NCBI RefSeq assembly: GCF_008727775.1
Contig: NZ_CP044232.1
Location: forward strand, 1,922,001-1,986,000
DNA: 64,000 nucleotides
Source of the DNA: Microbacterium lushaniae
GTDB taxonomy: Bacteria > Actinomycetota > Actinomycetes > Actinomycetales > Microbacteriaceae
Direction of reading: 5' to 3'
The notes under the pieces were generated by a model. It saw only the letters and a list, made by a program, of their open reading frames with translations, did not search any database and was not told the DNA's origin. The translations under genes were made by a program, and so were the position numbers. The stretch's first letter is position 1; each line of letters starts with the position of its first letter. Positions 49,273-63,608 of this stretch are shown here, one piece after another.

Positions 49273-49328
49273 GCCCCGAGCGTATCCACTACTCGCGGTC
49301 GCGAGAAGATCGTGGGACACTCCCATCA

Positions 49329-50370
49329 ATGTATCGGAATCCTCACGAAGGCTGGCACGGACCCCTGCCGCCGAGCCTCGCGCGCCGCGGGTTCACGCAC
49401 GAGTTCGCCCCGGTCGCCGACGGCGTCACCCTGAGCTTCGTGCGGGGGCCCGCGCACGGCACGCCGCTCGTGCTCATCCCCGCGCAGATGGGAACGTGGC
49501 AGACGTATACGGCCGTCGCTGCGGATCTGTCCGACGACTTCGAGGTGTTCGCCGTGGACGTCACCGGCCATGGGTCTTCGACGTGGACCCCCGGCGACTA
49601 CACGTGGAACACGGTCGGGCGTCACTTGGAAGACTTCCTCGAGCGGGTCGTCCGACGTCCGGCGGTCGTGGCGGGCAACTCCTCCGGAGGGATCCTCGCG
49701 CTCTGGCTGGCGGCGAACGCTCCCGACTCGGTCGCGGCCATCGTGCTGGAGGACGCCCCGGTCTTCTCCGTCGAGTGGCCGCGGTTCCGCGATCGCGATC
49801 GCTTCGTCTACCAGGGTCTGGTCCACGCCGTGGACGTGCTCGGCGACGTCACGCACCGGCAGCTGGCGGACTACTTCCGCGGCCAGGAGCTGCCGGTCTC
49901 CCCCCGCCGGGTCAAGCGCATGCCCGACTGGGTGGTCGACGCCCTGGGCCGTGGTGTATCCCGTTGGGAGCAGCAGCATCCCGGTGAGCCATCCGGCTTC
50001 CAGGCGTGGTGGGCACCATCATCCTTCGGCGACCTGTTCCGCTCACTGTCGATGTTCGACCCCGACTTCGCCCGGTCGTTCGTGGACGGGCGCATCTACG
50101 CCGACTTCTCCCACGAACAGGCTCTGCGCACGACCACCGCGCCGATCCTGCTGATGCATGCCCGGTGGATGCGACTGGAGCGCTACGGCCTCGTCGGCGC
50201 GATGGACGACGACGATGCCCGCCGAGTCGTCGCCCTCGCCCCCACAGACCCGACTCTGGCGATCGCGCGCAAACCACGTGATCCACCGCTACGACCGAGC
50301 CGGCTACGTCCGGGAACTCCGCGCCTTCGCTCGCACGCTTCCCACCCCGCGCCAAGGGCCCGCGGGATAG
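49329..50370 (+). pseudogene. Alpha/beta hydrolase with a frameshift near the C-terminus
   Basis: The first 310 or so residues are a normal alpha/beta hydrolase: GHGSSTW, nucleophile elbow GNSSGG, acid region LLMHARWMR. At about 50264-50270 the frame is lost. The true C-terminus, RANHVIHRYDRAGYVRELRAF with the catalytic His, continues in the +1 frame and stops at 50370. Loss of two bases from the GCGCGC tract explains it. In the original frame translation would run on through the tRNA. The protein is probably inactive, unless this is a sequence error. Confidence 0.75.
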
Positions 50371-50393
50371 GCGGCCGAGGAGCGCCCGGACAC

Positions 50394-50426
50394 GAAAACG
50401 CCCCGCCGATCGGACGGGGCGTTTTC
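50394..50426. terminator. Bidirectional terminator at left end of tRNA-Ala copy
   Basis: A perfect 12-bp stem (GAAAACGCCCCG, 50394-50405, against 50415-50426) with T-runs on both strands. It lies 17 bp beyond the 3' end of the left tRNA-Ala copy and also serves the hydrolase gene. Its position indicates that it was the native terminator of the tRNA before the element inserted. Confidence 0.88.
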
Positions 50427-50441
50427 GGGATTCTCGACTTC

Positions 50442-50521
50442 GGTGGACCTGAGGGGACTCGAACCCCTGACCCCCTGCATGCCATGCAGGTGCGCTACCA
50501 GCTGCGCCACAGGCCCGGATG
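50442..50521. repeat. Left attachment-site repeat of the island
   Basis: 80 bp identical to 63529-63608. Identity breaks immediately on both sides (C against T on the left; G against C on the right). It covers the complete tRNA-Ala plus two bases 3' and five bases 5' of it. Confidence 0.9.
50444..50516 (-). tRNA. tRNA-Ala(GGC), left copy
   Basis: A 73-nt cloverleaf with acceptor GGGCCTG against CAGGTCC, anticodon loop ATGGCAT (GGC) and discriminator A. The three bases after it are CCG, so CCA is not encoded. The 5' flank is island DNA, so this copy has probably lost the native promoter and may be silent. Confidence 0.9.
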
Positions 50522-50881
50522 GTCTCTCACCGACTGCCAAAACCCCCGGAATCCAGCCCCTCAGCTTCACTCCAGTGGTGGTGAGATCCACCATACGCGA
50601 CTGGCCCTCGAGGGATCAGGACGGTCATCGAAGACTCTAGATGTTTCTGAACCGTCTAGTTGGTGACTACAACTCGAGTCGCCGTTCGCGGTCAGGCCAG
50701 CAGCGCACTGAAGCAATGGTTCGTGTAGGCCTCACCCGGCTCGATCCGGCAAGAGCGGGCCCCTCGTGGTTTCTCCGCGCCGCCGCCTCGCGGGCGCTGC
50801 AACGACCCATTTTTGCCGCAACACGCCCTAACGCCGAGCCCGGTCAGGGCGTGTTGCGGCAAATGGGTGCGTGCGTGGGGG
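50522..50881. other. Gene-free left end of the island
   Basis: About 360 bp between the left att repeat and yjdM. The only open frame (50641-50913) has no coding character and runs through a palindrome. Nothing else is recognisable here apart from that palindrome. Confidence 0.6.
50805..50868. repeat. Palindrome with 23-25-bp arms
   Basis: ACCCATTTTTGCCGCAACACGCCCT (first 20 bases from 50805) pairs with 50846-50868, with a two-base bulge in the T run and a 16-base loop. It lies just 3' of yjdM on the minus strand and could terminate the cluster. Its size and sequence also fit a mobile palindromic element. Confidence 0.75.
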
Positions 50882-51252
50882 TCATAGAACCTTCTTCAGG
50901 ACACTCGACTTGAGCTGCATCCGACCGAATCACGGCACGTTCGCACGATGTCGTGGTCTCCGACGCCATCCTCGATGAGGCGGATGCCGCGCACCTTCGT
51001 TCCGACTTTCACCACACCCCCGCCGGCGCCCTTCACCCTGAGATCCTTGACGACCGTCACGGTGTCGCCATCGGCGAGCCCGTTGCCCACGGCATCCGTG
51101 ATCGCTGCCGCCGATTCCGAGACGTCCTCGGCGGACTCAGCCGACCACTCGTGCCCGTACATCGGACACTCGAGCAGTGCGCCCTGCTCGTAGGTGTGCG
51201 CCTCATGGCACTGCGGGCACGCAGGGAGAGCGTCGAGATTCGGATCGGTCAT
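50882..51252 (-). pseudogene. yjdM: YjdM/PhnA-family zinc-ribbon protein, decayed
   Basis: The N-terminal zinc ribbon and the SH3-like domain (DGDTVTVVKDLRVKGAGGGVVKVGTKVRGIRLIEDGVGDHDI) are intact in outline. Three lesions are visible. The second ribbon pair reads CPMY where CPxC is expected. After GDHDI a one-base loss shifts the frame, giving a nonsense tail that stops at 50896. In the shifted frame the true tail FGRMQLKSSVLKKVL is still readable, but a TGA replaces a Gly codon before it. The family's function is uncertain. ATGA coupling links it to the gene upstream. Confidence 0.75.
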
Positions 51253-51770
51253 GACTGCTTCCCGACCCGGAGCAGCTGGGTCGCCGCGGTTGTGAGGAAG
51301 AGCCCGAGGCCCGCCACGAGGGCGCTCACACCGAAAGCCAGCACCGACGTCATGAGGGACGTGCGCAGCGAGGCCGCTGTCGAGAGCGCAGAGCTCTGGT
51401 TGCGCAGGTCCCGCGCCTCATAGCTGTGAGCGTCGACGCCGCGTAGCGCGGCGCTGATGTCGGCGAAAGTCCGACCGCCCGCACCACGCTCAGCGTTGCC
51501 TTTGATGACGAGCGCCTCGACGTACGCACTGACAGGACCCTGTACGGGCTGGCCTGCGAAGATCGGAGCGTTGCCCGGCACCTCGATCCGTTCGGCCCGG
51601 AGCTGCTTCGTCACGACGAGCCACGCGGCGCTGCCCGCGACGACGAAGGCGGTCCCTGCGGTGAGAGCGAGCGCACCCACGCGATGCAAGGCGGAGTCAG
51701 GGGGCAGCGACGTATCGAGAGTCCTTCCGGTCGGAAGTCCACGAGCGCTCGCGGGTTCTCGAGGAATCAT
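51249..51770 (-). CDS. Two-helix membrane protein, LigA-annotated family
   Basis: A 173-residue protein with one membrane segment near residue 40 (GALALTAGTAFVVAGSAAWLVV) and a second near the C-terminus (SVLAFGVSALVAGLGLFLTT). The loop between them carries FAGQPVQGPVSAYVEALVI. Actinobacterial homologues are often mislabelled aromatic ring-opening dioxygenase LigA; nothing here suggests a dioxygenase. Function unknown. Coupled to yjdM by ATGA. Confidence 0.72.
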   Translation of the reverse strand: MIPREPASARGLPTGRTLDTSLPPDSALHRVGALALTAGTAFVVAGSAAWLVVTKQLRAERIEVPGNAPIFAGQPVQGPVSAYVEALVIKGNAERGAGGRTFADISAALRGVDAHSYEARDLRNQSSALSTAASLRTSLMTSVLAFGVSALVAGLGLFLTTAATQLLRVGKQS

Positions 51771-51797
51771 TCCACGGATCGACGAGGCGTCTACGCG

Positions 51798-53003
51798 TCA
51801 CCGCAGCTGTGCCGCCGCGCGCGCCAGCTGAGCGATGATGTCCTCGCACTGGGAGGGCGAGATCTCCTGGGAGATGCCGTGCACCGCCAAGAGCACATCT
51901 ACATCCGCGATTCTGCCGCGCACCTGGACGGACCGGACCGCTGCCCCCGAATGCAGCGCGCCGTCATCGGGCTCGTAGTTTTCCTCGAGCTCGCTCATCG
52001 CCGCGAGGAGTTGCCGCCGCAGATGCGGGGTGTGGCTGCCGCGGGAGAACTCCTCCACCACGCCGTCGAATGCTCCGTGAGGCTGCGAGACCAGCGCGAC
52101 CGAGGCTCCACGCTCACGCGCGCGCTCCACACGATCCGGCCAGTCCTCGAGCCGTTCACTGCGGCGCGACCGAGCGAGCCAATCCCGTAGCTCGGAGTCC
52201 CCATCGATCAGGAGTGCCCCGAATGGCGGGGCAAAGGGCAGCCGCCGACCGAGCACACTCGTGGCACGATTGGGCTCTTCGCCCACGGAAGCCACCGCAA
52301 TGAGCTCGTCGCCCACACGGGCGAAGACCACGACTTCGCGACCGAGATCCGAAGCAAGCCCGTCAAGAGCAGGACGCTCCGCTTCAATCGCGCGCACAAC
52401 CGGCACGATCGACGTTTCGCTCGGCAGAGCCGCCGTGGCTGTCCGAAAGGACCCGATGCTGCCCTGCAAGTACACAAGCGGAACGACAGAAGCGAAAGCC
52501 TCGAACGCGAGGACTTCGCCGACGATGAAGTCGTGGTCCCCGAGCGACATCGATCCGGCGAGGGAACACTCAAACCACGCCGCCACGCCGTCGATAATCG
52601 GCAGGCCCCCGGGCGAGGAGTTCACCCCGACACCCGCGAGCTTGTCCGACGCGCCCTTCGTCGCGAGCACCCGCACGAGCTCCTCGTGGCCGTGCGCCAG
52701 CACGTTGACGACAAATGTTGGACACTCTCGCAGTCTCGCGTACGAGGAAGAGCCCGCCGAGGGAAAGAACCCGATCAGGGGCGGCTCGATGGAGACAGAC
52801 ACGAACGTGCCCACCACCATCGAAACGGCCTCGCCATCGGGATGGAGAGCCGTGATCGCGCACACGCTCGTCGGCGCGTGGGTCACCGCAGACCACAAAG
52901 CGCCGCCGTCCGCGCGCGCGCCACGCAAGGATAGCGAGCTGGCGGCACGTCCCGCCGGGGCGGCTACCGCAGATGCAGCGGCCGCCCCGGACGCGGTCGT
53001 CAC
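51798..53003 (-). CDS. Flavin reductase fused to an IclR-type effector domain
   Basis: A 401-residue protein. Residues about 35-190 are a flavin reductase-like (FMN-binding split barrel) domain: APTSVCAITALHPDGEAVSMVVGTFVSVSIEPPLIGFF and DHDFIVGEVLAF. Residues about 210-395 resemble the ligand-binding domain of IclR regulators (VFARVGDELIAVASVG; LPFAPPFGALLI) but have no DNA-binding helix-turn-helix. It should reduce FMN with NAD(P)H for the adjacent luciferase-family monooxygenase. The fused domain suggests control by a substrate or product, as the effector-bound C1 reductase of p-hydroxyphenylacetate hydroxylase does. GTG at 53003 overlaps the dipeptidase stop by four bases; GTG at 53012 is an alternative. 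Confidence 0.82.
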   Translation of the reverse strand: MTTASGAAAASAVAAPAGRAASSLSLRGARADGGALWSAVTHAPTSVCAITALHPDGEAVSMVVGTFVSVSIEPPLIGFFPSAGSSSYARLRECPTFVVNVLAHGHEELVRVLATKGASDKLAGVGVNSSPGGLPIIDGVAAWFECSLAGSMSLGDHDFIVGEVLAFEAFASVVPLVYLQGSIGSFRTATAALPSETSIVPVVRAIEAERPALDGLASDLGREVVVFARVGDELIAVASVGEEPNRATSVLGRRLPFAPPFGALLIDGDSELRDWLARSRRSERLEDWPDRVERARERGASVALVSQPHGAFDGVVEEFSRGSHTPHLRRQLLAAMSELEENYEPDDGALHSGAAVRSVQVRGRIADVDVLLAVHGISQEISPSQCEDIIAQLARAAAQLR

Positions 53004-53986
53004 GACCCCCACACCTCGCGGTACAGGCGCAGCCAGTTGCCACCGAGAATCTTCTTGATCGACGCGTCGTCATAACCCCGGTCCTTCAGGCCCGCCTCGA
53101 TGTTCGGCATCTCCTTGCCGGTATCCAGACCAGCCAGCGCGGGGTCCGGGCGCGGCACCTGGGGCTGTGCACCGGGGATCTTGCCGTGCAGGCGGCGGAG
53201 GTAGTGCCAGTACGCCATGTCCTGCCCCTCGCAGAGGTCGGTGGCGATGGCGACATGGTCGGGGCCCGCGAACTGAACGACGTCGTCGATGGCGTCCAAG
53301 AACGCGTCGATCGTGGCGTCGAAACCGCCCGGCAGGAAGCGCGGGAACGCGTTCGCGCCGATGACTCCACCGCGATCGATGAGTTCCTTCACGACGGCGC
53401 GCGGCTTGTTGCGCGCGTGATTGGAGAACTCGCGCAGGTTGGCGTGGGTGATCGCCACCGGGGCCGTGGAGTGCTCGATGGTGTCGAGGCTGCTCTGATC
53501 ACCGACGTGCGAGAGGTCGATCAGCATGCCGAGCTCGTTAAGCTTGCGGACGGTGAGCTTGCCGAAGGTCGACAGACCCTCGTCCTTCTCCTCGTAGCAT
53601 CCGTTCGCGACGAGGTTGCGCAGGTTGTACGCGAGCTGCACAATGCGGATGCCGAGGGTATGAAACACCTCGAGGCGCTCGAAGTCGTTCTCAATCGGCG
53701 AGATGTTCTGCCATCCGAGAATGACGCCGAGCTTTCCCTCAACGTGGGCGCGTTCGATGTCCGCCGCCGTGCGCACCTGGATGAGGCGGTTATCCGCCTT
53801 GAACCGGCGCTGCCACTTGGCGCACTCGTCGACGCTCTCTTCGAAGCCTTCCCAGACAGCAACCGTCGCGTTGGCGGCCGCCACTCCCCCGGCAAGGAGA
53901 GAGTCGTAGACGACGGGCGAATCCCAGTTCGAGGGGTTGCAGCCGTCGATGATGAGCGTGCGGTCGGGGCTGAGCGTGGTCATCAC
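53000..53986 (-). CDS. M19 (membrane dipeptidase) family amidohydrolase, variant metal site
   Basis: A 328-residue TIM-barrel protein of the renal dipeptidase family. Conserved parts are MLIDLSHVGDQSSLDTI, APVAITHANLREF and VAIATDLCEGQD. The N-terminal HxD metal pair of classical M19 enzymes is absent (IIDGCNPSNWD), and the bridging Glu region reads GWQNISPIEND. It therefore belongs to a divergent M19 subfamily, and the substrate is unlikely to be a simple dipeptide. Coupled at both ends to its neighbours by four-base overlaps. Confidence 0.85.
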   Translation of the reverse strand: MMTTLSPDRTLIIDGCNPSNWDSPVVYDSLLAGGVAAANATVAVWEGFEESVDECAKWQRRFKADNRLIQVRTAADIERAHVEGKLGVILGWQNISPIENDFERLEVFHTLGIRIVQLAYNLRNLVANGCYEEKDEGLSTFGKLTVRKLNELGMLIDLSHVGDQSSLDTIEHSTAPVAITHANLREFSNHARNKPRAVVKELIDRGGVIGANAFPRFLPGGFDATIDAFLDAIDDVVQFAGPDHVAIATDLCEGQDMAYWHYLRRLHGKIPGAQPQVPRPDPALAGLDTGKEMPNIEAGLKDRGYDDASIKKILGGNWLRLYREVWGS

Positions 53987-55158
53987 GCCTCCTTCGGGGC
54001 GAAGTGCGGCATGACCTCGTCCGCGATGATGCGGAGCAATTCGAGGTTGTCAGCGTGCGACGCGGGAATGTGCAGGTTGAAGAGGAACTCCTCCAGACCG
54101 GGAAGCCGCGCTTCGATCTCGCGCAGGCAGGTCACGAGCTGCTCGGGGGTGCCTGCGAACCACGCGCCCGAGGCGAGCGTGTCTTCGAAGCTCGTCATGC
54201 GCGGCTGCTCGGGAATCGGCAGACCGGCTTCCTTGTGCAGCTCGATGAGCTCGTCGGTGTAGAGGAACACACCCAGCGGAGCACCGAACTTGGCGTACTC
54301 CTCGAAGTTGGGCAGCGCTTGGGCGCGCGCCTCTTCTTCGGTGGGCGCGACGAACGCGCGCATACCGACGATGAGGTTCTCTCCGAGCTCGAGCTCAACA
54401 CCCTGGCGTGCGTAGGCGTCGCGGTAGCCCTCAGCGATGGCGTACGTCACGGTGAGCGGCATTCCCGCAACCATGCCGCGGATGTTGTTGCGCGCCATGA
54501 AGTCGAGCCCAGCGGGGTTACCGCTCGTGGTGGGCTGCCAGATCTCCACCTCGTGAGTGGGCTTGGGGACAAGCGTGATCGTCTCGAACGCCTCGCCGCG
54601 GTGGGTCGATCCCTTCGGGGGAAGATCGAAGTAGGTGCCGTGGTGCTGCCAGTCGTCCTCGGAGAACGCCTTGCGGAGAACCTCGACCTCCTCCTCGAAG
54701 TACGCGCGACGCTCAGCGTCGGGCATCCCGATCATGGCCGGGTTCATGGTGACGATCTCACGCTCGTGGTACCCCCGGCCGACACCGAACCGAATGCGGT
54801 TGCCGGTGAGGTGGTCTGCCGTCGCGTAGTCCTCCGCCAGACGAAGCGGATTCCACGTCGGAATGATGTTGAAGCCGCAGCCCAGGCGCACTTTCGTCGT
54901 GTTCTGCGCGAGCCACAGCGACGTCATAGGGAGGTTATGCAGAACCTCGTAGCCCTCGTGCTGGAAGTGGTGCTCGGCCAGCCACAGAGTGTCGTAGCCC
55001 CATTCGTCGCATGCCCGTGCAATGCGGAGGCTCGCGTCGTAGACCGACATGAGCCGGTCGTTGTCGTAGCGACGCTCGTGGACGGCCGGACCGTCATACC
55101 CAAGCTGATCGCCGTCGATGACGCCGCCCTGATAGAGAACGCTGAAGCGCGAGATCAT
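53983..55158 (-). CDS. LLM-class flavin-dependent monooxygenase
   Basis: A 391-residue luciferase-like TIM barrel: WGYDTLWLAEHHF near residue 55, LGCGFNIIPTWNPLRLAEDYATADHLTGNRIRFGVGRG near 95-130, and an insertion with FDLPPKGSTHRG. Such enzymes use reduced FMN and oxygen for C-H, C-S or C-N attack. The reductase two genes away is the likely FMNH2 source. It lies 4 bp after the hydrolase gene and overlaps the M19 gene by four bases. Confidence 0.88.
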   Translation of the reverse strand: MISRFSVLYQGGVIDGDQLGYDGPAVHERRYDNDRLMSVYDASLRIARACDEWGYDTLWLAEHHFQHEGYEVLHNLPMTSLWLAQNTTKVRLGCGFNIIPTWNPLRLAEDYATADHLTGNRIRFGVGRGYHEREIVTMNPAMIGMPDAERRAYFEEEVEVLRKAFSEDDWQHHGTYFDLPPKGSTHRGEAFETITLVPKPTHEVEIWQPTTSGNPAGLDFMARNNIRGMVAGMPLTVTYAIAEGYRDAYARQGVELELGENLIVGMRAFVAPTEEEARAQALPNFEEYAKFGAPLGVFLYTDELIELHKEAGLPIPEQPRMTSFEDTLASGAWFAGTPEQLVTCLREIEARLPGLEEFLFNLHIPASHADNLELLRIIADEVMPHFAPKEA

Positions 55159-55162
55159 GGTG

Positions 55163-55939
55163 CTATTCCTTGTCGTTGGTGGGTCGCGCGAGAGCTGCGC
55201 TGACGAGGTCGGTGAATTGCGTGGGCTGTTCGATGTGCGGGAAGTGGCCGGCGTCGGTGATGGACTCGAACGACGCGCCAGGAAGGTCCGCGGCTAGTGC
55301 GCGGACACTGTCGATCGGCGTTCGACGGTCCTCGCTCGCGCCGATCACGGTCACGTTCGCCGTGATCTGGCCCAGACGCGGCGTGAGATCGAGGGTGTAG
55401 AGACCCTCCATGAGGCCCCGGAAGGCCTCCCGCGATACGCCGACAAAGCGCTCGATGAGGGTCGCCCTGGTCTGATCGGTAAGCGCGGCGAAGGTCATCC
55501 CCTCGACCAGGCGTACGGCGTACTCCGCGACCGTGAAGGTCTGGAAGTCGGAATCCAGGCCAGTGAGGCGACGTTCGCGTTCCTCAGCGGTCACCTGCAC
55601 AAAGGTGTTGATCACGATCAGGTCAGTCACGCGCTCGGGATGCCGAGTGGCGATGTCGATCGCCTCGCAGCCGCCCATCGAGACGCCGAGGACCGCGAAG
55701 GTCTCGATGCCTTCCGCGTCGAGCGTTTCGATGACGTCATCTGCGAACACGTCCGCGCCGGGCGTGGGCTCGTACGCGCTTTCGCCGTGGCCACGACGAT
55801 CCAGCGCGACGACACGACGCCCGTCGAGCTCGGGCAGAGCCGGCCAGTCACGGGAGTCCAAACCCATCGCGTTGAGTAGAACCAGTGTTGCGGCGTCCGG
55901 GCGAGTACCGGGTGCCAGTTCACGGAATTTGAGCAGCAC
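55163..55939 (-). CDS. Alpha/beta-fold hydrolase of the catabolic cluster
   Basis: A 258-residue protein resembling 3-oxoadipate enol-lactonase-type hydrolases: LLNAMGLDSRDWPAL, DRRGHGES, nucleophile elbow GVSMGG, acid in GASEDRRTP and His in DAGHFPHIEQP. GTG at 55939 has an excellent AAGGAGGG ribosome-binding site. It is placed between the TRAP permease and the monooxygenase. Confidence 0.88.
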   Translation of the reverse strand: MLLKFRELAPGTRPDAATLVLLNAMGLDSRDWPALPELDGRRVVALDRRGHGESAYEPTPGADVFADDVIETLDAEGIETFAVLGVSMGGCEAIDIATRHPERVTDLIVINTFVQVTAEERERRLTGLDSDFQTFTVAEYAVRLVEGMTFAALTDQTRATLIERFVGVSREAFRGLMEGLYTLDLTPRLGQITANVTVIGASEDRRTPIDSVRALAADLPGASFESITDAGHFPHIEQPTQFTDLVSAALARPTNDKE

Positions 55940-56042
55940 GATGCCACCCTCCTTTTTGTCGGAACGGATCAGTAGAAGTTTTCGGGTGCGGCAATCACCG
56001 CCGGCCACCCGGAATCATCGGGCGACCAGCGATACAGCGCCG

Positions 56043-57353
56043 TTAGGAGGACGAGGCGGAGTATGGAAGCCAGGTGGCGAGATCGGGGAAGGCCCAGAGC
56101 AACACCAAGCCGACGATCATGGCGAACACGAACGGCCACGAACCGCGGTACGCGTCGCCGAGCTTCGCGTCGGGGTACAGCTTCTTCTGTACGCCGTGCA
56201 GCACGAACAGGTTCATCCCGTACGGCGGGGTGATCATTCCCACCTCGACGAGGAGGACGACGATGACGCCGAACCAGATCATGTCGAAGCCGGCCGCCGC
56301 GACGAGGGGAACAATGATCGGAAGTGTTGTGACGATGACGGCGAGCGAGTCAAGGAATGCGCCCGCGATGAGCATGACGATCACGATGATGAGCATCAGC
56401 ATGAACGGCGACAGGTTGGCTGCGACGAGTGCTTCACCCGCGGCCCTCTGAACACCGAGGTATCCCAGCGCCGTCTGCATGATGTTCGCCCCGAGAAGCA
56501 AGAACATGATCATCGCGGTGGTCGCCGCCGTCGACGCGAACGTCTCCTTGAGCATCGACCAGTTGACCCGCTTCTTCAGCAGGGCAAGGACGAACGCTCC
56601 CGCGACGCCGAAGGCGGCAGATTCCGTGACCGTCGCGATACCGAGGTAGATCGAGAGCACCACGATGAGCATGAGCGCGATGAACGGAACGAGAGACAGC
56701 GACGCACGGATCTTCTCCCCCACGGGCACGCTCTCGCCGCGCGGGAGGTCACTACGTCGGATGCCGAAATACAGCGCGACGAGCATGAACAGCAGCGTCA
56801 GCATGATGCCCGGCACAATGCCGGCCATGAGCAGGTCTCCGATGGATTCCTTCGCGATCATGCCATAGATGACGAGCACCATCGACGGCGGGATCATGAT
56901 TCCCAGGGTTCCGCCCGCGGCGAGCGAGCCGAGCACCATGGGGCGGGGGTAGCCCTTTTCATAGAGCTGAGGAATGGCGACAGAACCGATCGTGGAGGCG
57001 ACCGCGACTGAGGTTCCCGACACCGAACCGAACATCGCCGAAGCGATGACGTTCGTATGGAGGAGCCCGCCGGGGACGCGGCCCATCCACATCGCCATCG
57101 TGCGATACATGCTGTCGGTGACACCGCTGCGCACGAGCAGGTCGCCCATCAAGGCGAACAGCGGAATGACGATGAGGGTCGTGTCGGAGAAAAGTTCCCA
57201 GGCAGAGTGACCCATGAGGCCGAGCGTCGGCCGGTCGGAGAAGAAGGTCAGCAAGATGATGCCGACGAACCCGAGCGCAACGGCGACATGGGTTCCGAAG
57301 ACGAACGCGCCCGCGAGAACGAGAATCAGGACGAGTAGGGCTTCCAGCAGCAT
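56043..57353 (-). CDS. dctM: TRAP transporter large permease subunit
   Basis: A 436-residue membrane protein with about twelve helices, a member of the ion-transporter superfamily. Hallmarks are FALMGDLLVRSG, GSVSGTSVAVASTIGSVAIP, GTLGIMIPPSMVLVIYGMI and MITPPYGMNLFVLHGV. It forms the sodium-driven channel of the TRAP system. Its start shares one base with the dctQ stop. Confidence 0.95.
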   Translation of the reverse strand: MLLEALLVLILVLAGAFVFGTHVAVALGFVGIILLTFFSDRPTLGLMGHSAWELFSDTTLIVIPLFALMGDLLVRSGVTDSMYRTMAMWMGRVPGGLLHTNVIASAMFGSVSGTSVAVASTIGSVAIPQLYEKGYPRPMVLGSLAAGGTLGIMIPPSMVLVIYGMIAKESIGDLLMAGIVPGIMLTLLFMLVALYFGIRRSDLPRGESVPVGEKIRASLSLVPFIALMLIVVLSIYLGIATVTESAAFGVAGAFVLALLKKRVNWSMLKETFASTAATTAMIMFLLLGANIMQTALGYLGVQRAAGEALVAANLSPFMLMLIIVIVMLIAGAFLDSLAVIVTTLPIIVPLVAAAGFDMIWFGVIVVLLVEVGMITPPYGMNLFVLHGVQKKLYPDAKLGDAYRGSWPFVFAMIVGLVLLWAFPDLATWLPYSASSS

Positions 57354-57865
57354 CAGGCGACCTCACCGTCGAGTGCAGGGTGCGCCGCCGGTCCGACGAT
57401 GGCGTCGAGCAGCGCGAGAACGGTCATGAACACCAAGGCGATGACAGCGAACGTCTGCGGAAAAGCGATGGGGACGGAGGTGGACTGCACGACAGCGCCG
57501 GTGGCAAGTGAGCGGTCAGCGACCGTCCACAGCGCCGCCGCGATGATGCCCGTGAACGCCGCCATCGCGAGCGAGCTGAAACGCGCACAGAGACGGTGCA
57601 GCTTCGCGGGATAGCGGGTGACGATGACCTCGATCATGATGTGCGACCCCGCCTGCAGTCCGTAGGGGAATGCCGCGGCGAGGGTGAAGGCGGCGAGAAC
57701 CGAGACGATCTGCTCGGTCGCACCAGTGGAGATCGAGAAGAAGTGCCGCGAGAGGGTGTCCGCGAGGAGGAAGACCGCGATCACCGCGATCAACCCCCCC
57801 GCGAGAAATCCCAGCCCTCGGGCGACGTGTCCCAGGAGCGCTCGCGCTCGCGTGACAATTGTCAT
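57353..57865 (-). CDS. dctQ: TRAP transporter small permease subunit
   Basis: A 170-residue protein with four membrane helices and the DctQ signature (ATEQIVSVLAAFTLAAAFPYGLQAGSHIMIEVI). It partners DctM and lies 46 bp downstream of dctP. Confidence 0.94.
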   Translation of the reverse strand: MTIVTRARALLGHVARGLGFLAGGLIAVIAVFLLADTLSRHFFSISTGATEQIVSVLAAFTLAAAFPYGLQAGSHIMIEVIVTRYPAKLHRLCARFSSLAMAAFTGIIAAALWTVADRSLATGAVVQSTSVPIAFPQTFAVIALVFMTVLALLDAIVGPAAHPALDGEVA

Positions 57866-57911
57866 GAGTGATGACTCCTCTAGGAATAGAAGGCCGAGGG
57901 CCGGGAGGAAA

Positions 57912-58961
57912 CTACTTGATCGAGAAGCCGGCGAAGGTGGCCAGGTTCTCGTTGAAGACGGCGACAGCGTCTTCGCCGGAACGAGCAGCCCAGTTCTTCA
58001 CCACAACGTCCTGAGACATCGTGGCGAGCTTGGAGCTCCACTCGCTGTCGACGGGAACGACGACGACGCCTGCTTCTTCGGCGCGGACCGTGCCACCCTC
58101 GGTGGCCTCACGGGCGATGTCCCAGCTCGTCTCGCTGAAGACCTCGGCGGATGCCGTGATCGCGTCGCGATCAGCGTCCGTCAGAGACTCCCACATCGGC
58201 TCGTTCATGACGGCGAGCGCACCGGTGCAACCGAGGTTCACGTCAACGAGGTGCGAGGAGACCTCTCCGAGGCTGAGGTCGGAGCCGGCGGTGGCACCCG
58301 TGATGACACCGTTGATGACACCGCGCTGCATCGAAGCGTAGGTGTCTGCCAGCGGCATGGAGACCGGCTCGGCACCGAGCGAGCGGACGATGTCGGACTG
58401 TGCTTCACCGAACGCGCGCACCTTCATGCCCTGGATGTCTGCGAGGTCGGTGATATCGCGGTCGCTCCACAGGTAGATGCACTCCCACCCGATCGAACCG
58501 AGTACGTGACCGCCAGTGGATTCGGGGAGTCCATCCAGACCCGAGGACCACGCTTCCCACGCAGACTTGGAGGTGTCGAAGCCATCGAAGACGCCCGGCA
58601 GCTGCACGCCCTCGATGAGCGGCTGCTCACCGGCGACGAATCCAGGGATGATCTCCATCATGTCTGCAAGGCCATCGGAGACGAGGCTGATCGCTTCGGA
58701 ACCGTTGAAGCCGAGTTCGGCCATGTCCGTGAGTTCGACCGTGATCGCTCCGTCGGTGCGCTCTGCGAGGTCTTCAGCGAAGGCCTCCCAAGCCTGGAAC
58801 GGGAGTGACGATCGCGAGTTGGCGACTGCCTTGAGCGTGACGGTGCTGTACCCATCCGTCGCGGTCTCTGCATCGGCACCGGTGTCCCCGGCGCACCCCG
58901 CGATTGCGAGCAGTGAACCCGTGACGACTGTGGCGAGAACAGCCTTCTTCGTACGCGACAT
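57912..58961 (-). CDS. dctP: TRAP transporter substrate-binding lipoprotein
   Basis: A 349-residue extracytoplasmic binding protein. A lipoprotein signal with lipobox AIAGC tethers it to the membrane. The conserved IQGMKVRAFGE holds the Arg that in DctP proteins grips a substrate carboxylate, and MQRGVINGVITGA is the second hinge motif. A carboxylate-bearing ligand is therefore likely. ATG at 58961 has AAAGGTG upstream. First gene of the minus-strand catabolic operon. Confidence 0.94.
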   Translation of the reverse strand: MSRTKKAVLATVVTGSLLAIAGCAGDTGADAETATDGYSTVTLKAVANSRSSLPFQAWEAFAEDLAERTDGAITVELTDMAELGFNGSEAISLVSDGLADMMEIIPGFVAGEQPLIEGVQLPGVFDGFDTSKSAWEAWSSGLDGLPESTGGHVLGSIGWECIYLWSDRDITDLADIQGMKVRAFGEAQSDIVRSLGAEPVSMPLADTYASMQRGVINGVITGATAGSDLSLGEVSSHLVDVNLGCTGALAVMNEPMWESLTDADRDAITASAEVFSETSWDIAREATEGGTVRAEEAGVVVVPVDSEWSSKLATMSQDVVVKNWAARSGEDAVAVFNENLATFAGFSIK

Positions 58962-59101
58962 CGGCGCACCTTTCAATTTGGGGGTAGTCGGCGACACGCT
59001 CAACGAGCCGCTGGAGGTGGGAATACTCTGACATGCCGTAAACCCGTCCCAAGACGCCAAGTTGTATAAATCAGTGCCGACCGCGCGCCACGAGGGCATC
59101 C

Positions 59102-59117
59102 GTTTCGAGCACGAAAC
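59102..59117. promoter_or_regulatory. Inverted repeat in the dctP-pucR gap, possible operator
   Basis: GTTTCG (59102-59107) and CGAAAC (59112-59117) are perfect complements four bases apart. They sit in the 204-bp divergent gap between dctP and the PucR-type gene and could bind that regulator. Short; could be chance. Confidence 0.35.
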
Positions 59118-59165
59118 AAATCGGTAACACTTTTCGCTCGTTTTCTCCTGCCGAAGTGTCTATAG

Positions 59166-60719
59166 ATGCGCCATGATGATGCCGTGCCTGTGAATGGTCC
59201 AGCTCTCCGCGACATCGTCGAGGACCCCACCCTCCGACTCCGCGTCGTTTCCGCGACCTACACCCCCGACCTCTCGCTCACGGGCTTCTCGGTGAGCGAG
59301 CTGCCCGACCCCACTGCATATTGGGATGAGCCGGGAACCATCCTCCTCACGACGGCACTCTCACTGGACCGCGACTCCTCTTCCGCGATGCGCGACTATG
59401 TCTCTCGTCTGCGCGAGGGTGGGGTCATCGCCGTCGGCATCGCGATCGGACCCCACGTCCTTGGGAAGGCGCCCGATCGACTCCTGCATGAAGCAGATGC
59501 GCAGGGGGTGACCGTCTTCGAGGTGCCGCTGAGCACACGATTCATCGGCGTCACACAGGCGATCGTGGATCTACTCAGTCGCGCGAAGTACGAAGCGCGC
59601 ATCCGCGCCCTCGACGTGCAACGAGATTTCTCTCGTGCAGCGCTACGGGCGGACGGGGCTCACCTCATCGTCGACCGTCTGGGAGGCGCCATCGACGCGG
59701 CTGCGGCAGCTCTCATCCGCGCGGACGGCAAAGTCCAGGAGGCCAGCTCCCGATTTCCGCACGACCAGCTTCCGGTGATCGCAGACGAGATCACGCAGAT
59801 CATCCCGCGGGGCCTGCACATCACCGCAAGCATCGCTCTCGGAAATGCGGGGAACGCGCTCATCTATCCGATTGGCCTCGACGAACGCCCCTCCGCTTAT
59901 CTCGCTGTGACCCACGCATCAAAGCTCGGCGACTCCGACCGCGGCGTGATCGCATCGGCCGTTGCCATGCTCGCCCTCCACCTGGATCGTGGCGCCGGGG
60001 AGACACGCATACAGCGGGCTGCCCGACGGCGCCGCGTGGGCGCACTGGTGACAGGCGTACAAGACCATGTCGACCTTCTCAGCGATATCGCCGACCTCGC
60101 TCCCTTCCCCTACCGCGACGATGATGTCGTGGTGCTGGTCGCGACGGCCCCAGAAGACAATGCGAAGCTCATCGACGAGCTCGAGCGGTCTCCCGCGCTC
60201 GCGGGCTGCGAGATGGCTCTGCTCGAGCAGCGGATCGTGGTGATCACAACCGCCGACCGCAGCGAGCGCAACATCGATGACCTCCTCACTCGCGCCATGC
60301 GCATCGGTGTCTCACGACCGGTTGCTTTCGACGACGTGGCGGACGCGTACGACAGCGCGTTGCGCGCGCACGCGACGGCTCGAGCGCTCGCCAGAGACGT
60401 GGTGCGGTCGTCATCGAGCCTGGCCAGCCCGATCACGGCGCTCGTTCCACAGCAGGTTCTCGGGACGTGGGCGCGAGATGCCGTGTCCGAGTTGAAGACG
60501 GTCCTGGGTGAGGCGCGGTATGAAGACGCGATCGCTGCGCTCGCCGCATACTTGCGCACCAACGGTTCGATCACGCAGGCGGCAGCCGAGCTCGGAGTTC
60601 ACCGCCATACCCTGCGCGCACACCTGCACGCAGTCGAGCAAGCCATTGGCGCCTCGTTCCAAGATCCCGATACGCGCGCCAGCGTCTGGCTCATGTTGCG
60701 AGCCATGCACATCGTTTGA
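59166..60719 (+). CDS. PucR-family transcriptional regulator
   Basis: A 517-residue protein. The N-terminal PucR ligand domain (residues about 10-130, YWDEPGTILLTTALSL, HEADAQGVTVFEVPL) is followed by a central CdaR/GGDEF-like part and a C-terminal helix-turn-helix of the PucR type (AAYLRTNGSITQAAAELGVHRHTLRAHLHAVE). ATG at 59166 or GTG at 59184. It is divergent from the TRAP operon and is the obvious local activator. Confidence 0.92.
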   Translation: MRHDDAVPVNGPALRDIVEDPTLRLRVVSATYTPDLSLTGFSVSELPDPTAYWDEPGTILLTTALSLDRDSSSAMRDYVSRLREGGVIAVGIAIGPHVLGKAPDRLLHEADAQGVTVFEVPLSTRFIGVTQAIVDLLSRAKYEARIRALDVQRDFSRAALRADGAHLIVDRLGGAIDAAAAALIRADGKVQEASSRFPHDQLPVIADEITQIIPRGLHITASIALGNAGNALIYPIGLDERPSAYLAVTHASKLGDSDRGVIASAVAMLALHLDRGAGETRIQRAARRRRVGALVTGVQDHVDLLSDIADLAPFPYRDDDVVVLVATAPEDNAKLIDELERSPALAGCEMALLEQRIVVITTADRSERNIDDLLTRAMRIGVSRPVAFDDVADAYDSALRAHATARALARDVVRSSSSLASPITALVPQQVLGTWARDAVSELKTVLGEARYEDAIAALAAYLRTNGSITQAAAELGVHRHTLRAHLHAVEQAIGASFQDPDTRASVWLMLRAMHIV

Positions 60720-60766
60720 CCCGAGGACGTTGTACTCGCGTCATCCCACCTCACGAAAGGACGGTC

Positions 60767-61090
60767 TTGCACATACACATCACAACAGACGGCGTCACCG
60801 TCACCGATCTCGAGGAGCTCCGCGCGCTCGACGCTGTCATCGAACCCGGGGTGGATGCCGACAGCATCCTGCGCTCGACGCATGCGGGCCACGTCGTCGA
60901 TGACGACCACATCGCCGTTACCCTGGCATTCCTGCGCGCGTCTGCCCTCGGCGCGAACCTCCCGGCAGGATGGGAGGCGGGTTTCGAGAAGACCGTCGCA
61001 TATGCCGAGTCCAAGGGATGGGTCCTGCAGGATCCACCTGCGCTCCGTGTGCACGTCGTCCAGAACGAGACGCTCCCACCCTCCGCCTGA
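60767..61090 (+). CDS. Hypothetical protein, TTG start
   Basis: A 107-residue acidic protein that I do not recognise (LHIHITTDGVTVTDLEELRALD; HVVDDDHIAVTLAFLRASAL). No ATG or GTG fits near the 5' end, but GAAAGGAC lies six bases before TTG at 60767, so a TTG start is proposed. It follows the PucR gene by 47 bp on the same strand. Confidence 0.68.
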   Translation: MHIHITTDGVTVTDLEELRALDAVIEPGVDADSILRSTHAGHVVDDDHIAVTLAFLRASALGANLPAGWEAGFEKTVAYAESKGWVLQDPPALRVHVVQNETLPPSA

Positions 61091-61093
61091 ACA

Positions 61094-61210
61094 TCAGCGC
61101 GCGTGGATGGTCACGACACCCCAGTAGGTCGGGTGCGCGTCGTTCCATGCGTTCCGCTGTGCGGCCAGGCGCGCTGCCCGCTCGTCGTCGCTCGGCGGCG
61201 CGTCACTCAT
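61094..61210 (-). CDS. Very small hypothetical protein (38 aa)
   Basis: MSDAPPSDDERAARLAAQRN starts a 38-residue frame that overlaps the upstream gene's stop by eight bases. The end NDAHPTYWGVVTIHAR looks protein-like. No family recognised. It converges on the 60767-61090 gene. Confidence 0.5.
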   Translation of the reverse strand: MSDAPPSDDERAARLAAQRNAWNDAHPTYWGVVTIHAR

Positions 61211-61478
61211 GGTGGTCCACTGCGAGAGCGCCGTCGAGCTCAACGAGAGCTGTGAACAACTCCTCGCGCGTCGCGGTGGGGTCGGTGATCGCTCTTGCGA
61301 AGAGCGCACGCATCCGTTCCCGCTCGGCGTCGGACACATCGCCGAGCCGCGCGAGACACCATTCAATGTCGTCGGCGAGGCTATAGCTCGGATCATCCAC
61401 CTCGATGCCGGGGTAGTACAAGAACGCGAGCACAGCCACGTACTCCAGGACGGCGTCAGCGCGCTCACGATCGCTCAT
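61203..61478 (-). CDS. Hypothetical protein
   Basis: A 91-residue acidic, helical protein (MSDRERADAVLEYVAVLAFL; YSLADDIEWCLARLGDVSDAERERM) with no family recognised. It is co-directional with and overlaps the 38-residue gene. Possibly accessory to the island. Confidence 0.6.
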   Translation of the reverse strand: MSDRERADAVLEYVAVLAFLYYPGIEVDDPSYSLADDIEWCLARLGDVSDAERERMRALFARAITDPTATREELFTALVELDGALAVDHHE

Positions 61479-61572
61479 GGCATGAAGGTGCGCACCCAGC
61501 GCCCACGATTCGCGCGGCGATGTCTGCTGGTCGGTCTACTGTCGTGCATGTTCGGCCCGAGGAGGAAGCCCA

Positions 61573-61857
61573 ATGGCCGAACCGCGCCCGTGGCACCCGC
61601 TCCTCGCAGCGCGCGAAGGGCCGACGAGCACGTGGATCTTGGTGGACGCGTTCGACCGCGTGTAGGGCACCATCGAGATCGCCGGGTGAACGCCACCGAA
61701 GTCCGCTATCGTGCCAGCTTCCTGGGTCATCGGCTGGTCAAGAACCCTCCGCCTCGCCTACGAGCGGGTCCACGGTGAGTTCCTGCGGAACCACGGCCCG
61801 AACGGCGGACCGTTCGCGAGTTGGGACACGAACGATCGAGGTGGACCGATCGAATAG
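61573..61857 (+). pseudogene. Decayed hypothetical gene beside the integrase
   Basis: GGAGGA precedes ATG at 61573. The frame reads MAEPRPWHPLLAAREGPTST onward to DAFDRV, then meets TAG at 61663. Coding character continues as GTIEI, shifts frame (VNATEVRYRASFLGH) and returns to the first frame as IGWSRTLRLAYERVHGEFL up to TAG at 61855. One nonsense codon and two frameshifts mark a dead gene. The remnant is adjacent to the 3' end of the integrase. Confidence 0.7.
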
Positions 61858-61860
61858 TTA

Positions 61861-63140
61861 CTATGCCACTTCGATGTCTTCCTCGTCGAGGAAGTCCAGC
61901 GCCGGATCATCGACCGCTCCGTCGTCGGTCGAGAGCAACGAGGTATCGGGGTCGACCCGGCGTAGCGTCCGTTCGAGGATTCCCGCCAGCCCCCGATCCA
62001 CGCTGCGGTCGGGCTTGATGTAGTGCCCTTCTGTGATCGCGCTCGATCCGTGGCCGAGGAAGGTGGCGGCAGCGTCGGCGCTCGCCCCGCGCGCGATAAC
62101 CGTTGCACCGGTCCGTCGGTACCAGCGCAACGTGATCCGCTCCCCCACGAGATCTGCCAGCTCGAGGAACGCTCGGAAGGCCCGTCGCACATTGAACAGG
62201 CTCAGTGGCTTGCTCGCACGATTGGCGAAGATGGTCCGTGTCGGATCGATGGCCGAGATGCCGGCAAGCCGTGCACGAAGGACGTCCGCGGCGAAGTCGG
62301 GGACCGCGATTCGGCGGATGGAGTGCTCGGACTTGGGGTGGTCTTGGCGTACGGCCCCGCTGCCGGTGCGCAACACGACCGTCCCCTTCACCGAGATCGT
62401 CATCCCGCTGGGACCGTCCTCGACATCGCACACGCGGAGAGCGAGGCACTCACCGATGCGCAACGCAGTGCCGAGGAGCACTTCGATGACGTCGCGCACT
62501 TGACCGTCGGGCTTCGGACCCTTCACGTCCGGTCCCGTCCGCCACCGAGTCGCGGCGTCGCGGCGTCGCGGATGGCGCTGATCTGCGCCACGGTCAGCGC
62601 TTGCGGCTCGCCCTTCGGCCGACGCAGCGGACTCGTTCCCTGCACCGGGTTCCGCGGGATGGCATCGTGCCGGAGCGCGAAACCGAAGAGGAGATTGAGC
62701 ATGGTCCGCGAGTGCTTCGCTCGCGAGTATGACACCGCGCGCTCGGAGCGGAGGAACCATTCGACCCGCCCCGTCGTGATCTCGCCCAGCGTGAAGTGCT
62801 CGAACTGAGGCAGCACGTGGAGACGGAGATCGTCACGGTAGTTCTCCTTTGTCCCATCGGATAGCTTCTGCAGCTCGAGGTCCTCGAGCCACAGGCCGGC
62901 GAGATCCCGGAAGGAGCTGGTGAGGTCGAGCAATCCCCCGGTCCCGAAACCGGGCCGTTCGAGCAGACGCTGCCTCAACCTCGCTCGAGCTGCCGAGCCC
63001 GTGCGGGCGGCGCCCGTCACTCTCCGCAAGCGCCCGTCGGCGTCGCGAATCCGCGCCAACGCCACGTACGACGATCCTCGCCTCCTGACACTGATGGTTC
63101 CGTATGAACCGATCTGGGTGCGCGGCCGCCCCCCGTTCAC
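61861..63140 (-). pseudogene. int: Tyrosine recombinase (integrase), frameshifted by an 8-bp duplication
   Basis: The N-terminal half (GTG at 63140) shows an AP2-like arm domain (SYGTISVRRRGSSYVALARI) and a SAM-like core-binding domain. The catalytic half is in another frame: ALRIGECLALR (first Arg), GATVIARGASADAAATFLGH (the H-x-x-R region is HxxR-like, here YRRTGAT) and EGHYIKPD (Tyr nucleophile). The frames join if one copy of the tandem repeat GCGGCGTC (62552-62559, 62560-62567) is removed: RDAAT then continues as RWRTGPDVKG. A full-length protein would have about 424 residues. Ribosome-binding site GGGGGAG precedes the GTG, just after xis. Confidence 0.85.
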
Positions 63141-63160
63141 AACACTCCCCCGCTGTGTCG

Positions 63161-63478
63161 CTACTCGTCTGCCAGCTCCATTCGGTGCACCCATGCGTCG
63201 ATCTCGCTCTTGCGAAATCTCAGCTGCGTGCCGACGCGGAATCCACGGGGTCCACGGCCCTTGCTCCGCAGGTCGTAGATCGTCTGGACGGAGACCTTCA
63301 GCTCGGCAGCAAGCTCGGCCAACGAGACGTAGTTCCCGTGTCCTGACTCGGAGGCGCCAACAGCGTCCATATAGCGAAGGTGCGCGTCCCTTTCCGCGTA
63401 CCTTCCAGATACTTCGAGAAGGTCCGAGAGCGCACTGCGGCGCTCCGGTGAAGTGTCCAGTAAACGACGACCAAACAT
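63161..63478 (-). CDS. xis: Excisionase-like helix-turn-helix protein
   Basis: A 105-residue protein. The C-terminal half is a MerR/excisionase-type winged helix: YVSLAELAAELKVSVQTIYDLRSKGRGPRGFRVG then LRFRKSEIDAWV. It lies 20 bp upstream of the integrase and 52 bp downstream of the right tRNA-Ala 3' end on the same strand, so read-through from the tRNA promoter may drive both. Confidence 0.88.
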   Translation of the reverse strand: MFGRRLLDTSPERRSALSDLLEVSGRYAERDAHLRYMDAVGASESGHGNYVSLAELAAELKVSVQTIYDLRSKGRGPRGFRVGTQLRFRKSEIDAWVHRMELADE

Positions 63479-63528
63479 CCAAGCTCCCTGATCAGAGAGT
63501 GAAGATTCGGTGCTTTACCGGGAGTTTT

Positions 63529-63608
63529 GGTGGACCTGAGGGGACTCGAACCCCTGACCCCCTGCATGCCATGCAGGTGCGCTACCAGCTGCGCCACAGG
63601 CCCGGATG
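63529..63608. repeat. Right attachment-site repeat of the island
   Basis: 80 bp identical to 50442-50521. It adjoins xis and int on the left and chromosomal DNA on the right, so it carries the host 5' flank of the tRNA. Confidence 0.9.
63531..63603 (-). tRNA. tRNA-Ala(GGC), right copy, probably the functional one
   Basis: The same 73-nt tRNA as at 50444-50516. Here the bases after the discriminator read CCA. The upstream flank is chromosomal, so this copy should keep the native promoter. Its native terminator has been displaced 13 kb away by the island. Confidence 0.93.

What the first reader, a model, noticed from the sequence alone, without database searches (positions are those of the whole stretch)
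50442..63608. tRNA-Ala island bounded by full-length 80-bp tRNA duplicates
Both ends carry an identical 80-bp segment containing the entire tRNA-Ala(GGC). Most tRNA-targeting elements duplicate only the 3' part of the gene. Here the whole tRNA plus five bases of 5' flank is duplicated. xis and int sit exactly where expected for insertion at the tRNA 3' end. The cargo is catabolic rather than phage or conjugative.
Basis: partly seen in the sequence, partly recalled or inferred. Interest (0 to 1): 0.72.

Follow-up and report, generated by a model that had tools for sequence, protein, structure and literature searches.

The report
Crippled mobile island carrying whole tRNA
A 13-kb stretch of imported transport and catabolism genes in a Microbacterium genome looks like the broken remnant of a conjugative element family that, unusually, carries a complete alanine tRNA gene at its integration point, so both ends of the island show a full tRNA instead of a tRNA and a fragment.

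Summary
Confirmed: an exact 80-bp repeat (50442-50521, 63529-63608) with a complete tRNA-Ala(GGC) in each copy. It bounds an island: the nearest relative held (G313) has one tRNA between the same flanks, apart from 1.7 kb on the left. Relatives show its nature. Seventeen Microbacterium genomes, this one included, share the distal end, a conserved arm followed by a tRNA-Ala copy. In four of them the copies bound ICEs of 64-67 kb with a 13-gene backbone (VirD4- and VirB4-like, MobF relaxase). The window keeps both ends, a frameshifted integrase and a 41-residue stub of one backbone gene: a defective, ICE-derived island. The surprise is family-wide: attP carries a whole tRNA. In 16 distal copies bases 1-39 deviate in 2 of 624 cells, the adjacent flank in 81 of 595. 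Four more distant integrase relatives have only a 3' fragment from base 39-42 on the same contig; four others showed no second copy. Distal copies in G420 and G514 differ from the host at base 4, so the 5' half is element-borne. The five extra flank bases are coincidence. Why the 5' half is kept is unresolved.

The parts
63528..63603 (-). tRNA-Ala(GGC), promoter-proximal copy (attL): native promoter side plus, by inference, element-derived 3' part; CCA encoded
50442..50516 (-). tRNA-Ala(GGC), distal complete copy (attR): by inference element-derived 5' part and chromosomal 3' part
50517..50684 (.). conserved distal end (arm) of the element family
   Evidence: blastn to G018 over 50537-50684 and to G179 over 50537-50623; alignment of 17 sites
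50590..50595 (-). TATGGT here, TATGCT at the matching place in 14 of 16 arms by script (G186's is visible): -10-like box, untested
   Evidence: no sigma-70-type promoter found by scan
50537..50549 (+). CCAAAACCCCCGG, distal arm motif 1, inverted relative to the proximal motif
50565..50573 (+). CTTCACTCC, distal arm motif 2 (exact in 15 of 16 arms)
63518..63530 (-). CCAAAACTCCCGG, proximal arm motif 1, overlapping the tRNA 3' end
63496..63504 (-). CTTCACTCT, proximal arm motif 2 (CTTCACTCC in most relatives listed)
63161..63478 (-). xis-like helix-turn-helix protein (105 aa)
   Evidence: PF12728, TIGR01764 above its cut-off
61864..63140 (-). tyrosine integrase, frameshifted: N-terminal part 63140-62556, catalytic part 62562-61864
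62549..62571 (.). 8-bp tandem array that shifts the int frame
   Evidence: 12 of 12 spanning homologues lack the 8 bases
61118..61240 (-). 41-residue stub (73% identity) of the first ICE backbone gene after int; ICE homology ends here
   Evidence: blastn to G018 ends at 61123
59166..60719 (+). PucR-family regulator
   Evidence: PF07905, PF13556
57912..59099 (-). TRAP transporter solute-binding protein DctP
   Evidence: PF03480, NF037995
57353..57865 (-). TRAP small permease DctQ
   Evidence: PF04290
56043..57353 (-). TRAP large permease DctM
   Evidence: PF06808, TIGR00786
55163..56008 (-). alpha/beta hydrolase (3-oxoadipate enol-lactonase-like, below NCBI cut-off)
   Evidence: PF00561
53983..55158 (-). 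luciferase-like (LLM) monooxygenase
   Evidence: PF00296
53000..53986 (-). membrane dipeptidase family M19
   Evidence: PF01244
51798..53012 (-). flavin reductase-like domain protein
   Evidence: PF01613
50896..51252 (-). PhnA/YjdM zinc-ribbon protein
   Evidence: PF03831
50399..50416 (-). terminator-like hairpin past the distal tRNA, on the chromosomal side
   Evidence: 1 found, 0.5 expected in shuffles

Best explanation
The segment is an ICE-derived genomic island, now transfer-deficient, integrated at the 3' side of the tRNA-Ala(GGC) gene. Its parent family is a tyrosine-integrase ICE (64-67 kb, T4SS-type with MobF relaxase) of Microbacterium whose attP has the order: distal arm, complete tRNA-Ala gene, proximal arm, xis, int. 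Strand exchange inside the tRNA (3' of base 4; by analogy with outgroup integrases near base 40) left a promoter-proximal tRNA with host 5' part and element 3' part, and a distal tRNA with element 5' part and host 3' part. Because the element also brings bases 1-39, the distal remnant is a complete tRNA gene instead of the usual fragment. In this strain the backbone was lost, transport and catabolic genes fill the middle, and int has a frameshift, so self-excision is unlikely. Shown: repeat, both tRNAs, family, backbone in relatives, single-tRNA sites, differing distal copies in G420 and G514, broken int. Inferred: exact crossover, the circular attP itself, order of loss and cargo gain, any transcription of the distal copy.
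For: Exact repeat and two complete tRNAs. Empty site: G313 has window 43.6-48.8 kb at 77-84%, one tRNA, then window 63610 onward at 90%; G006, G007 and G024 also show one tRNA between flanks. The distal arm with a tRNA copy is in 16 of 366 genus genomes, this one included (E <= 1e-25), and G090 is a 17th; the copy is 75/75 in 11 of 17 and 74/75 in G288. ICE backbone of 13 G070 genes: 13 of 13 in G132, G216, G288; 12 plus 1 on two contigs of G018; 1 in the window; 2 in G179, 1 in G350, 0 in G213, G186, G333 (E <= 1e-10). Backbone products: VirD4/TraG, SSB, M23, Prim-Pol, MobF relaxase, VirB4-like. The stub ends mid-gene. G420: proximal GGGTCTG...CAGATCC, distal GGGCCTG...CAGATCC; G514: proximal GGGTCTG, distal GGGCCCG. 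Int frameshift.
Against: No relative shows the exact junction of 50441 with 63609. The cargo matched no other of 361 genus genomes at E <= 1e-100, so its arrival cannot be traced. G420's distal copy is on another contig than its integrase, and G514's is not followed by a recognised native terminator, so those two are less certain ends. G466, an integrase relative at 66%, has only a 3' fragment, so the whole-tRNA state is not universal near this clade. Excision was not tested.
Confidence: 0.85

Rival explanations
1. The whole-tRNA copy is a functional part of the element, kept by selection: as a tRNA gene, or so that transcription from an element promoter at the distal end passes through a normally processed tRNA into xis-int on the excised circle, while after integration the host tRNA promoter drives xis-int.
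For: Bases 1-26 of the distal copy deviate in 2 of 416 cells, the adjacent 40 flank columns in 81 of 595 (Fisher p about 2e-17, not corrected for shared ancestry). TATGCT sits 76-78 bases before the tRNA in 14 of 16 arms. xis starts 49 bp after the tRNA. ICEKp1 switches int between the host tRNA promoter and an element 3'-end promoter (PMC13023037, abstract and passages).
Against: A simple scan found no sigma-70-like promoter there. The distal copies of G420 and G514 have acceptor mismatches and lose the predicted cloverleaf, and G298's is disturbed; those of G090, G196 and G247 are broken. Related integrases manage with a 3' fragment.
Confidence: 0.3
2. The 5' half is a passive relic captured once in the ancestor and kept identical by gene conversion or repeated exchange with the host tRNA gene, which is itself under selection.
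For: The proximal tRNA copies seen in Microbacterium have the same bases 1-73, so conversion would leave no trace; one origin of the trait is compatible with the integrase tree (1 change, support 76/69).
Against: Differences between element and host 5' halves persist in G420, G514, G018 (base 9), G298 (base 24) and G090 (base 6), so conversion is not complete or fast.
Confidence: 0.45
3. An independent small mobilizable element (IME or CIME) rather than a reduced ICE.
For: G350 (23 kb) and G179 (28 kb) have the same two ends and at most 2 of 13 backbone matches; G350's int frame is unbroken.
Against: The window keeps a mid-gene stub of a backbone gene and G179 a relaxase piece at 80% identity, which points to loss from an ICE.
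Confidence: 0.12
4. Plain duplication of a tRNA gene with unrelated DNA between the copies, no site-specific recombination.
For: Two full-length tRNAs; such a case seems to exist in G325, where each of two copies has its own promoter-like and terminator-like flank.
Against: The distal copy has the element arm, not a promoter copy; the proximal copy is joined to conserved xis-int DNA; the same architecture recurs with different contents in other genomes.
Confidence: 0.02

Closest known systems
T4SS-type ICEs integrating at tRNA genes (such as ICEKp1, ICEclc)
   Same: tyrosine integrase next to the tRNA 3' end; relaxase and coupling protein in the large relatives; tRNA terminator displaced to the far end, as in ICEKp1 (PMC13023037, abstract and passages)
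   Different: attP carries the whole tRNA; that ICEKp1 and ICEclc leave only a short 3' repeat is recalled, not read
Genomic islands as defined by Islander (tDNA plus displaced tDNA fragment)
   Same: tRNA target, integrase, direct repeat, orientation
   Different: the displaced copy is not a fragment. Islander rejects hits inside known full-length tRNA genes; of its 3919 islands 3760 have 3' and 159 have 5' fragments (PMC4383910, passages)
Archaeal integrated elements with long att sites
   Same: att sites of 102 bp and 243 bp are reported for two Thermococcales elements, long enough to hold a tRNA gene, and enclose the shorter att of related integrases (PMC8371274, passages): the nearest possible precedent seen
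   Different: archaeal, other integrase families; whether those sites contain a whole tRNA was not stated in the passages seen
Actinomycete ICEs (AICEs, such as pSAM2, SLP1)
   Same: actinobacterial host, mostly tRNA targets, tandem arrays; one attL of 81 bp in Frankia, extending beyond the tRNA 3' end (PMC3218068, passages)
   Different: AICEs use one FtsK-like translocase (same source); the relatives here have VirD4/VirB4-like proteins and a MobF relaxase
Tycheposons of Prochlorococcus and others
   Same: tRNA at the border, tyrosine recombinase, metabolic cargo (second-hand from PMC10872708, passages)
   Different: ICE ancestry with conjugation genes; the original tycheposon paper was not read

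Membership tests
T4SS-type ICE (the parent family) | integrase with flanking att repeats | tested here: met
   paired tRNA copies on one contig in G070, G216, G132, G288; integrase aligned without break in them and in G018
T4SS-type ICE (the parent family) | relaxase, coupling protein and T4SS ATPase | tested here: met
   G070 by profile (the VirB4-like matches are below NCBI cut-offs), G132, G216, G288, G018 by homology
T4SS-type ICE (the window itself) | conjugation genes present | tested here: not met
   1 of 13 backbone genes, only a 41-residue stub
T4SS-type ICE | excision and transfer | not testable with these tools
   needs living cells
Islander-type tRNA island | regenerated tRNA plus displaced tRNA fragment | tested here: not met
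   displaced copy is a complete tRNA gene
AICE | FtsK/SpoIIIE translocase as sole transfer protein | tested here: inconclusive
   none of the 20 of 48 called G070 proteins scanned with Pfam matched FtsK; 28 were not scanned
Tycheposon | defining modules of the Prochlorococcus elements | not tested
   only a second-hand description was read

The most novel reading that the evidence does not exclude
A conjugative element family keeps a complete host-type tRNA gene inside attP because it is used: as a second tRNA gene, or as a processed leader between an element promoter at the distal end and xis-int on the excised circle. Every integration then adds a full tRNA-Ala gene to the host, and such islands would be missed by searches that require a tRNA fragment.
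Probability: 0.3. Interest if true: 0.65.

Novelty: new variant of a known kind. Interest (0 to 1): 0.48.

Why it matters
The published Islander procedure looks for a tRNA and a fragment and rejects second copies that are full-length tRNA genes, so a family with a whole tRNA in attP would be missed. The family also offers a natural comparison, related integrases with and without the tRNA 5' half beside their core site, for asking what that half does. For the strain itself it explains the extra tRNA gene and frames the origin of a catabolic cluster not found in other genomes of the genus searched.

Tried and rejected
A third tRNA-Ala call at 41736-41814 was rejected: its sequence does not match the tRNA in a blastn of the window. 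An extra tRNA fragment that would make 48784-50441 a second island: none in a pattern search with up to 3 mismatches. The cargo elsewhere: no match in the other 360 of 361 genus genomes at E <= 1e-100, a strict limit that would miss diverged clusters; no near match among plasmids. Literature on complete tRNA genes in attP: searches (8-15 rows listed of up to 331 papers; only open-licence papers held) listed no titled precedent; passages of PMC5495485, PMC3146451, PMC3218068, PMC4383910, PMC8371274, PMC11476347 and PMC10872708 were read. Williams 2002 is not held and the SLP1 originals were not listed, so a precedent in print cannot be excluded.

Rows dropped and results not counted: the pairwise means use 14 of 17 sites (G090, G196, G247 have broken copies); one search uses 16 of 17 (no G090). 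One search cut at E <= 1e-25, so more decayed distal ends like G090's can be missing. Of ten outgroup integrase loci fetched, four gave a 3' fragment (G466, two in G456, G467), one a full copy (G514), and five no second copy in the stretch held (G420, G516, G068, G568, G440; G420's was found later on another contig). In one search, among six genomes, only G685 has its fragment within 100 kb of the integrase-side tRNA on one contig; G688's is 0.4 Mb away in the other orientation, the rest lie on other contigs, so that these are the matching ends is inferred. The tree gives the split only 76/69 support, and 7 of its 22 rows are in neither group.
Full report
What was checked. Both copies are tRNA-Ala(GGC) on the minus strand and score 64.4 bits each with the Rfam tRNA model. 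A search of the closed 3.65-Mb genome found these two and a third tRNA at 83% whose anticodon reads CGC. The right copy runs into the island as CCAAAAC, so CCA is encoded; the left copy ends CCG.

It is an island. In G313, the nearest relative held by flank identity, window 43.6-48.8 kb (77-84% identity) is followed after about 90 bp by a single identical tRNA and then directly by window 63610-68000 at about 90%. In G006, G007 and G024 one tRNA lies between left-flank DNA (ending near window 44.6 kb) and right-flank DNA (from about 64168). G010 and G020 also have one tRNA, with other DNA or weaker matches on the left. No island DNA matched in the stretches of these genomes that were compared. 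The left junction is not proven to the base, because 48784-50441 is missing in G313 too, and 49330-50441 matched only one of the other 360 genus genomes, weakly and elsewhere in its chromosome.

The family. Searching 295 genus genomes with the xis-int end gave long matches in G216, G018, G175, G192, G117, G132, G156, G070, G221, G288, G179, G161, G213 and G284 and shorter remnants beside the tRNA in others; 89 genomes matched in all, many only weakly. Record titles show the genus to be Microbacterium. Searching 366 genus genomes with the distal end gave 16 with the arm plus tRNA, this one included, and G090 is a 17th. Distances between paired copies on one contig: 13.1 kb in the window, 23 kb in G350, 28 kb in G179, 34 kb in G213 (composite), 38 kb in G333 (whose int-side end differs), and 64-67 kb in G216, G070, G288 and G132.

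The parent is an ICE. Thirteen genes are shared by the large elements. In G070 they include a VirD4/TraG-type coupling protein, SSB, an M23 peptidase, Prim-Pol, an ArdC-like N-terminal domain and a TrwC/MobF relaxase-helicase, a VirB4-like ATPase (below NCBI's cut-off) and an SCO6880-family protein (above it). All 13 match in G132, G216 and G288; G018 has 12 on one contig and the relaxase on another. The window has a 41-residue stub of one (61118-61240, 73% identity), where homology to G018 also stops (61123). G179 keeps a piece of the relaxase at 80% identity; its M23-domain matches (37-45%) may be unrelated. So the window and G179 look like ICEs that lost their backbone.

The window's integrase is broken. 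Its N-terminal and catalytic parts are in different frames: an 8-bp tandem unit in 62549-62571 is extra relative to 12 of 12 homologues that span the place. Intact genes exist in relatives. G179 and G213 have truncated integrases and G186 only short pieces.

Cargo. A TRAP transporter (DctP, DctQ, DctM), an LLM monooxygenase, a flavin reductase-like protein, an M19 dipeptidase, an alpha/beta hydrolase resembling 3-oxoadipate enol-lactonase, a PucR-type regulator and a PhnA-like protein. Cut-offs for specific enzymes were not reached, so the substrate is unknown. The cluster matched none of the other 360 genus genomes at E <= 1e-100 and no plasmid in a near search.

The whole tRNA is a property of the family. 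At the proximal end most of these islands have the native promoter-side flank, the tRNA, then CCAAAACTCCCGGTAAAGC or close to it. At the distal end the tRNA is preceded by a conserved arm with GGAGTGAAG (15 of 16 arms) and CCGGGGGTTTTGG or close to it, the reverse complements, with few changes, of the proximal CTTCACTCC and CCAAAACTCCCGG: the tRNA lies between inverted arm motifs. Of 17 distal copies 11 are identical to the tRNA over 75 bases and G288 over 74; G018 differs at base 9, G298 at three places, and G090, G196 and G247 are broken. CATCC belongs to the distal arm and matches the promoter side only in some hosts (window, G132, G350), so the shared block is the tRNA itself.

Conservation. 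In 16 distal sites tRNA bases 1-39 deviate from consensus in 2 of 624 cells, bases 1-26 in 2 of 416, the last 40 columns of flank in 81 of 595 and columns -100 to -41 in 105 of 959 (Fisher p about 2e-17 and 5e-15 for bases 1-26, ignoring shared ancestry). Bases 40-75, by inference host-derived, deviate in 26 of 576, mostly in the broken copies. By the usual geometry the 5' half of the distal copy comes from the element, so an element-borne sequence is being kept constant, by selection or by exchange with the host gene.

Where the crossover lies. In G420 (integrase 67% identical) the integrase-side tRNA reads GGGTCTG...CAGATCC and the other copy GGGCCTG...CAGATCC; in G514 (71%) they read GGGTCTG and GGGCCCG. 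So bases 4 (and 6) of the distal copy are not the host's, and exchange falls 3' of base 4; that the CAGATCC end does not pair with GGGCCTG suggests an origin from another tRNA and an exchange 5' of base 69, but A69 is in both copies, so this is inference. G420's copies are on different contigs, and G514's second copy is not followed by a recognised terminator. More distant relatives leave fragments that start at tRNA base 42 (G466, tRNA-Ala), 40 (G456, tRNA-Thr) and 39 (G467, tRNA-Met; G456, tRNA-Lys), all on the integrase's contig; G516, G068, G568 and G440 showed no second copy in the stretch held. In six Nocardioides, Tetrasphaera and Marmoricola genomes fragments start at 31-45, mostly on other contigs. 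This suggests an exchange near base 40. On the integrase tree the whole-tRNA and fragment groups are separated by one branch (support 76/69), compatible with one origin in Microbacteriaceae but not strong.

Mechanism. Best supported: integrase-mediated exchange inside the tRNA, as in ordinary tRNA-targeting ICEs, with an attP that includes bases 1-39 as well. What the extra half does is open. One possibility is a promoter switch as described for ICEKp1, where the host tRNA promoter drives int when integrated and an element 3'-end promoter drives it when excised (PMC13023037; abstract and passages). Here TATGCT lies 76-78 bases before the distal tRNA in 14 of 16 sites; the window has TATGGT at -79, and in G186 the script picked another site though TATGCT is visible. 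xis starts 49 bases after the tRNA. Against this: no sigma-70-type match by simple scan and disturbed predicted folds in G420, G514 and G298, while the window's copy and G018's keep the cloverleaf. A passive relic kept identical by exchange with the host gene remains somewhat likelier.

Literature. Islander (PMC4383910, passages) describes the island signature as a tRNA plus a fragment and rejects matches that fall within known full-length tRNA genes. A review of archaeal integrases reports two att sites longer than 100 bp (PMC8371274, passages), the nearest possible precedent seen. Searches of the open-licence library listed no title on a complete tRNA in attP; this does not show that none exists.

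Noticed in passing
L072 (G186) 7942-16592: Three full-length tRNA-Ala copies in tandem, two elements in a row; the second is a ~1.4-kb remnant with a different int-side end, so a second element type may also carry a full tRNA.
   Followed up: partly
L216/L217 (G333), tRNAs at G333:C1:1109707 and 1147429: Both tRNA copies are followed by the same 50 bases (CTGTGATGAGTCGCGACATAGG...), so the int-side end seems replaced or overwritten; similar GTGATG sequence follows a tRNA copy in G222, G070 and G514.
   Followed up: no
L298 (G212) 1773-5271: A 3.4-kb interval between two full tRNA-Ala copies whose int-side and distal flanks look like a more divergent arm pair.
   Followed up: partly
L068 (G213) 8760-8834 and 16355-16429: Degenerate tRNA copies in a composite array, one with a changed but still complementary T stem next to a second int-side end; a distal arm in the same array is cut off after about 18 tRNA bases.
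   Followed up: partly
L069 (G284) 9896-9970: A 36-bp 3' tRNA fragment (bases 40-75) beyond a decayed integrase of this family: the ordinary fragment state at the same tRNA.
   Followed up: partly
L220 (JACEFY010000001.1): Record labelled Stenotrophomonas maltophilia P13 carries this ICE and tRNA and is placed in the window's genus group here (G288): probably a mislabelled assembly.
   Followed up: no
window 48784-50441: DNA absent from G313 (MarR-like and alpha/beta hydrolase reading frames, named by eye) between the conserved left flank and the distal tRNA, with no further tRNA fragment.
   Followed up: partly
window 50812-50863: Inverted repeat with 21-bp arms (95% complementary) between the distal arm and the PhnA-like gene, perhaps a terminator.
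   Followed up: no
L297 (G325) 1767-4386: Two tRNA-Ala(GGC) genes 2.5 kb apart, each with its own promoter-like and terminator-like flank: apparently a true gene duplication.
   Followed up: no
window 63161-63478: The xis-like protein also matches, below the curated cut-off, a helix-turn-helix model of a methylation-associated defence system (NF047737).
   Followed up: no
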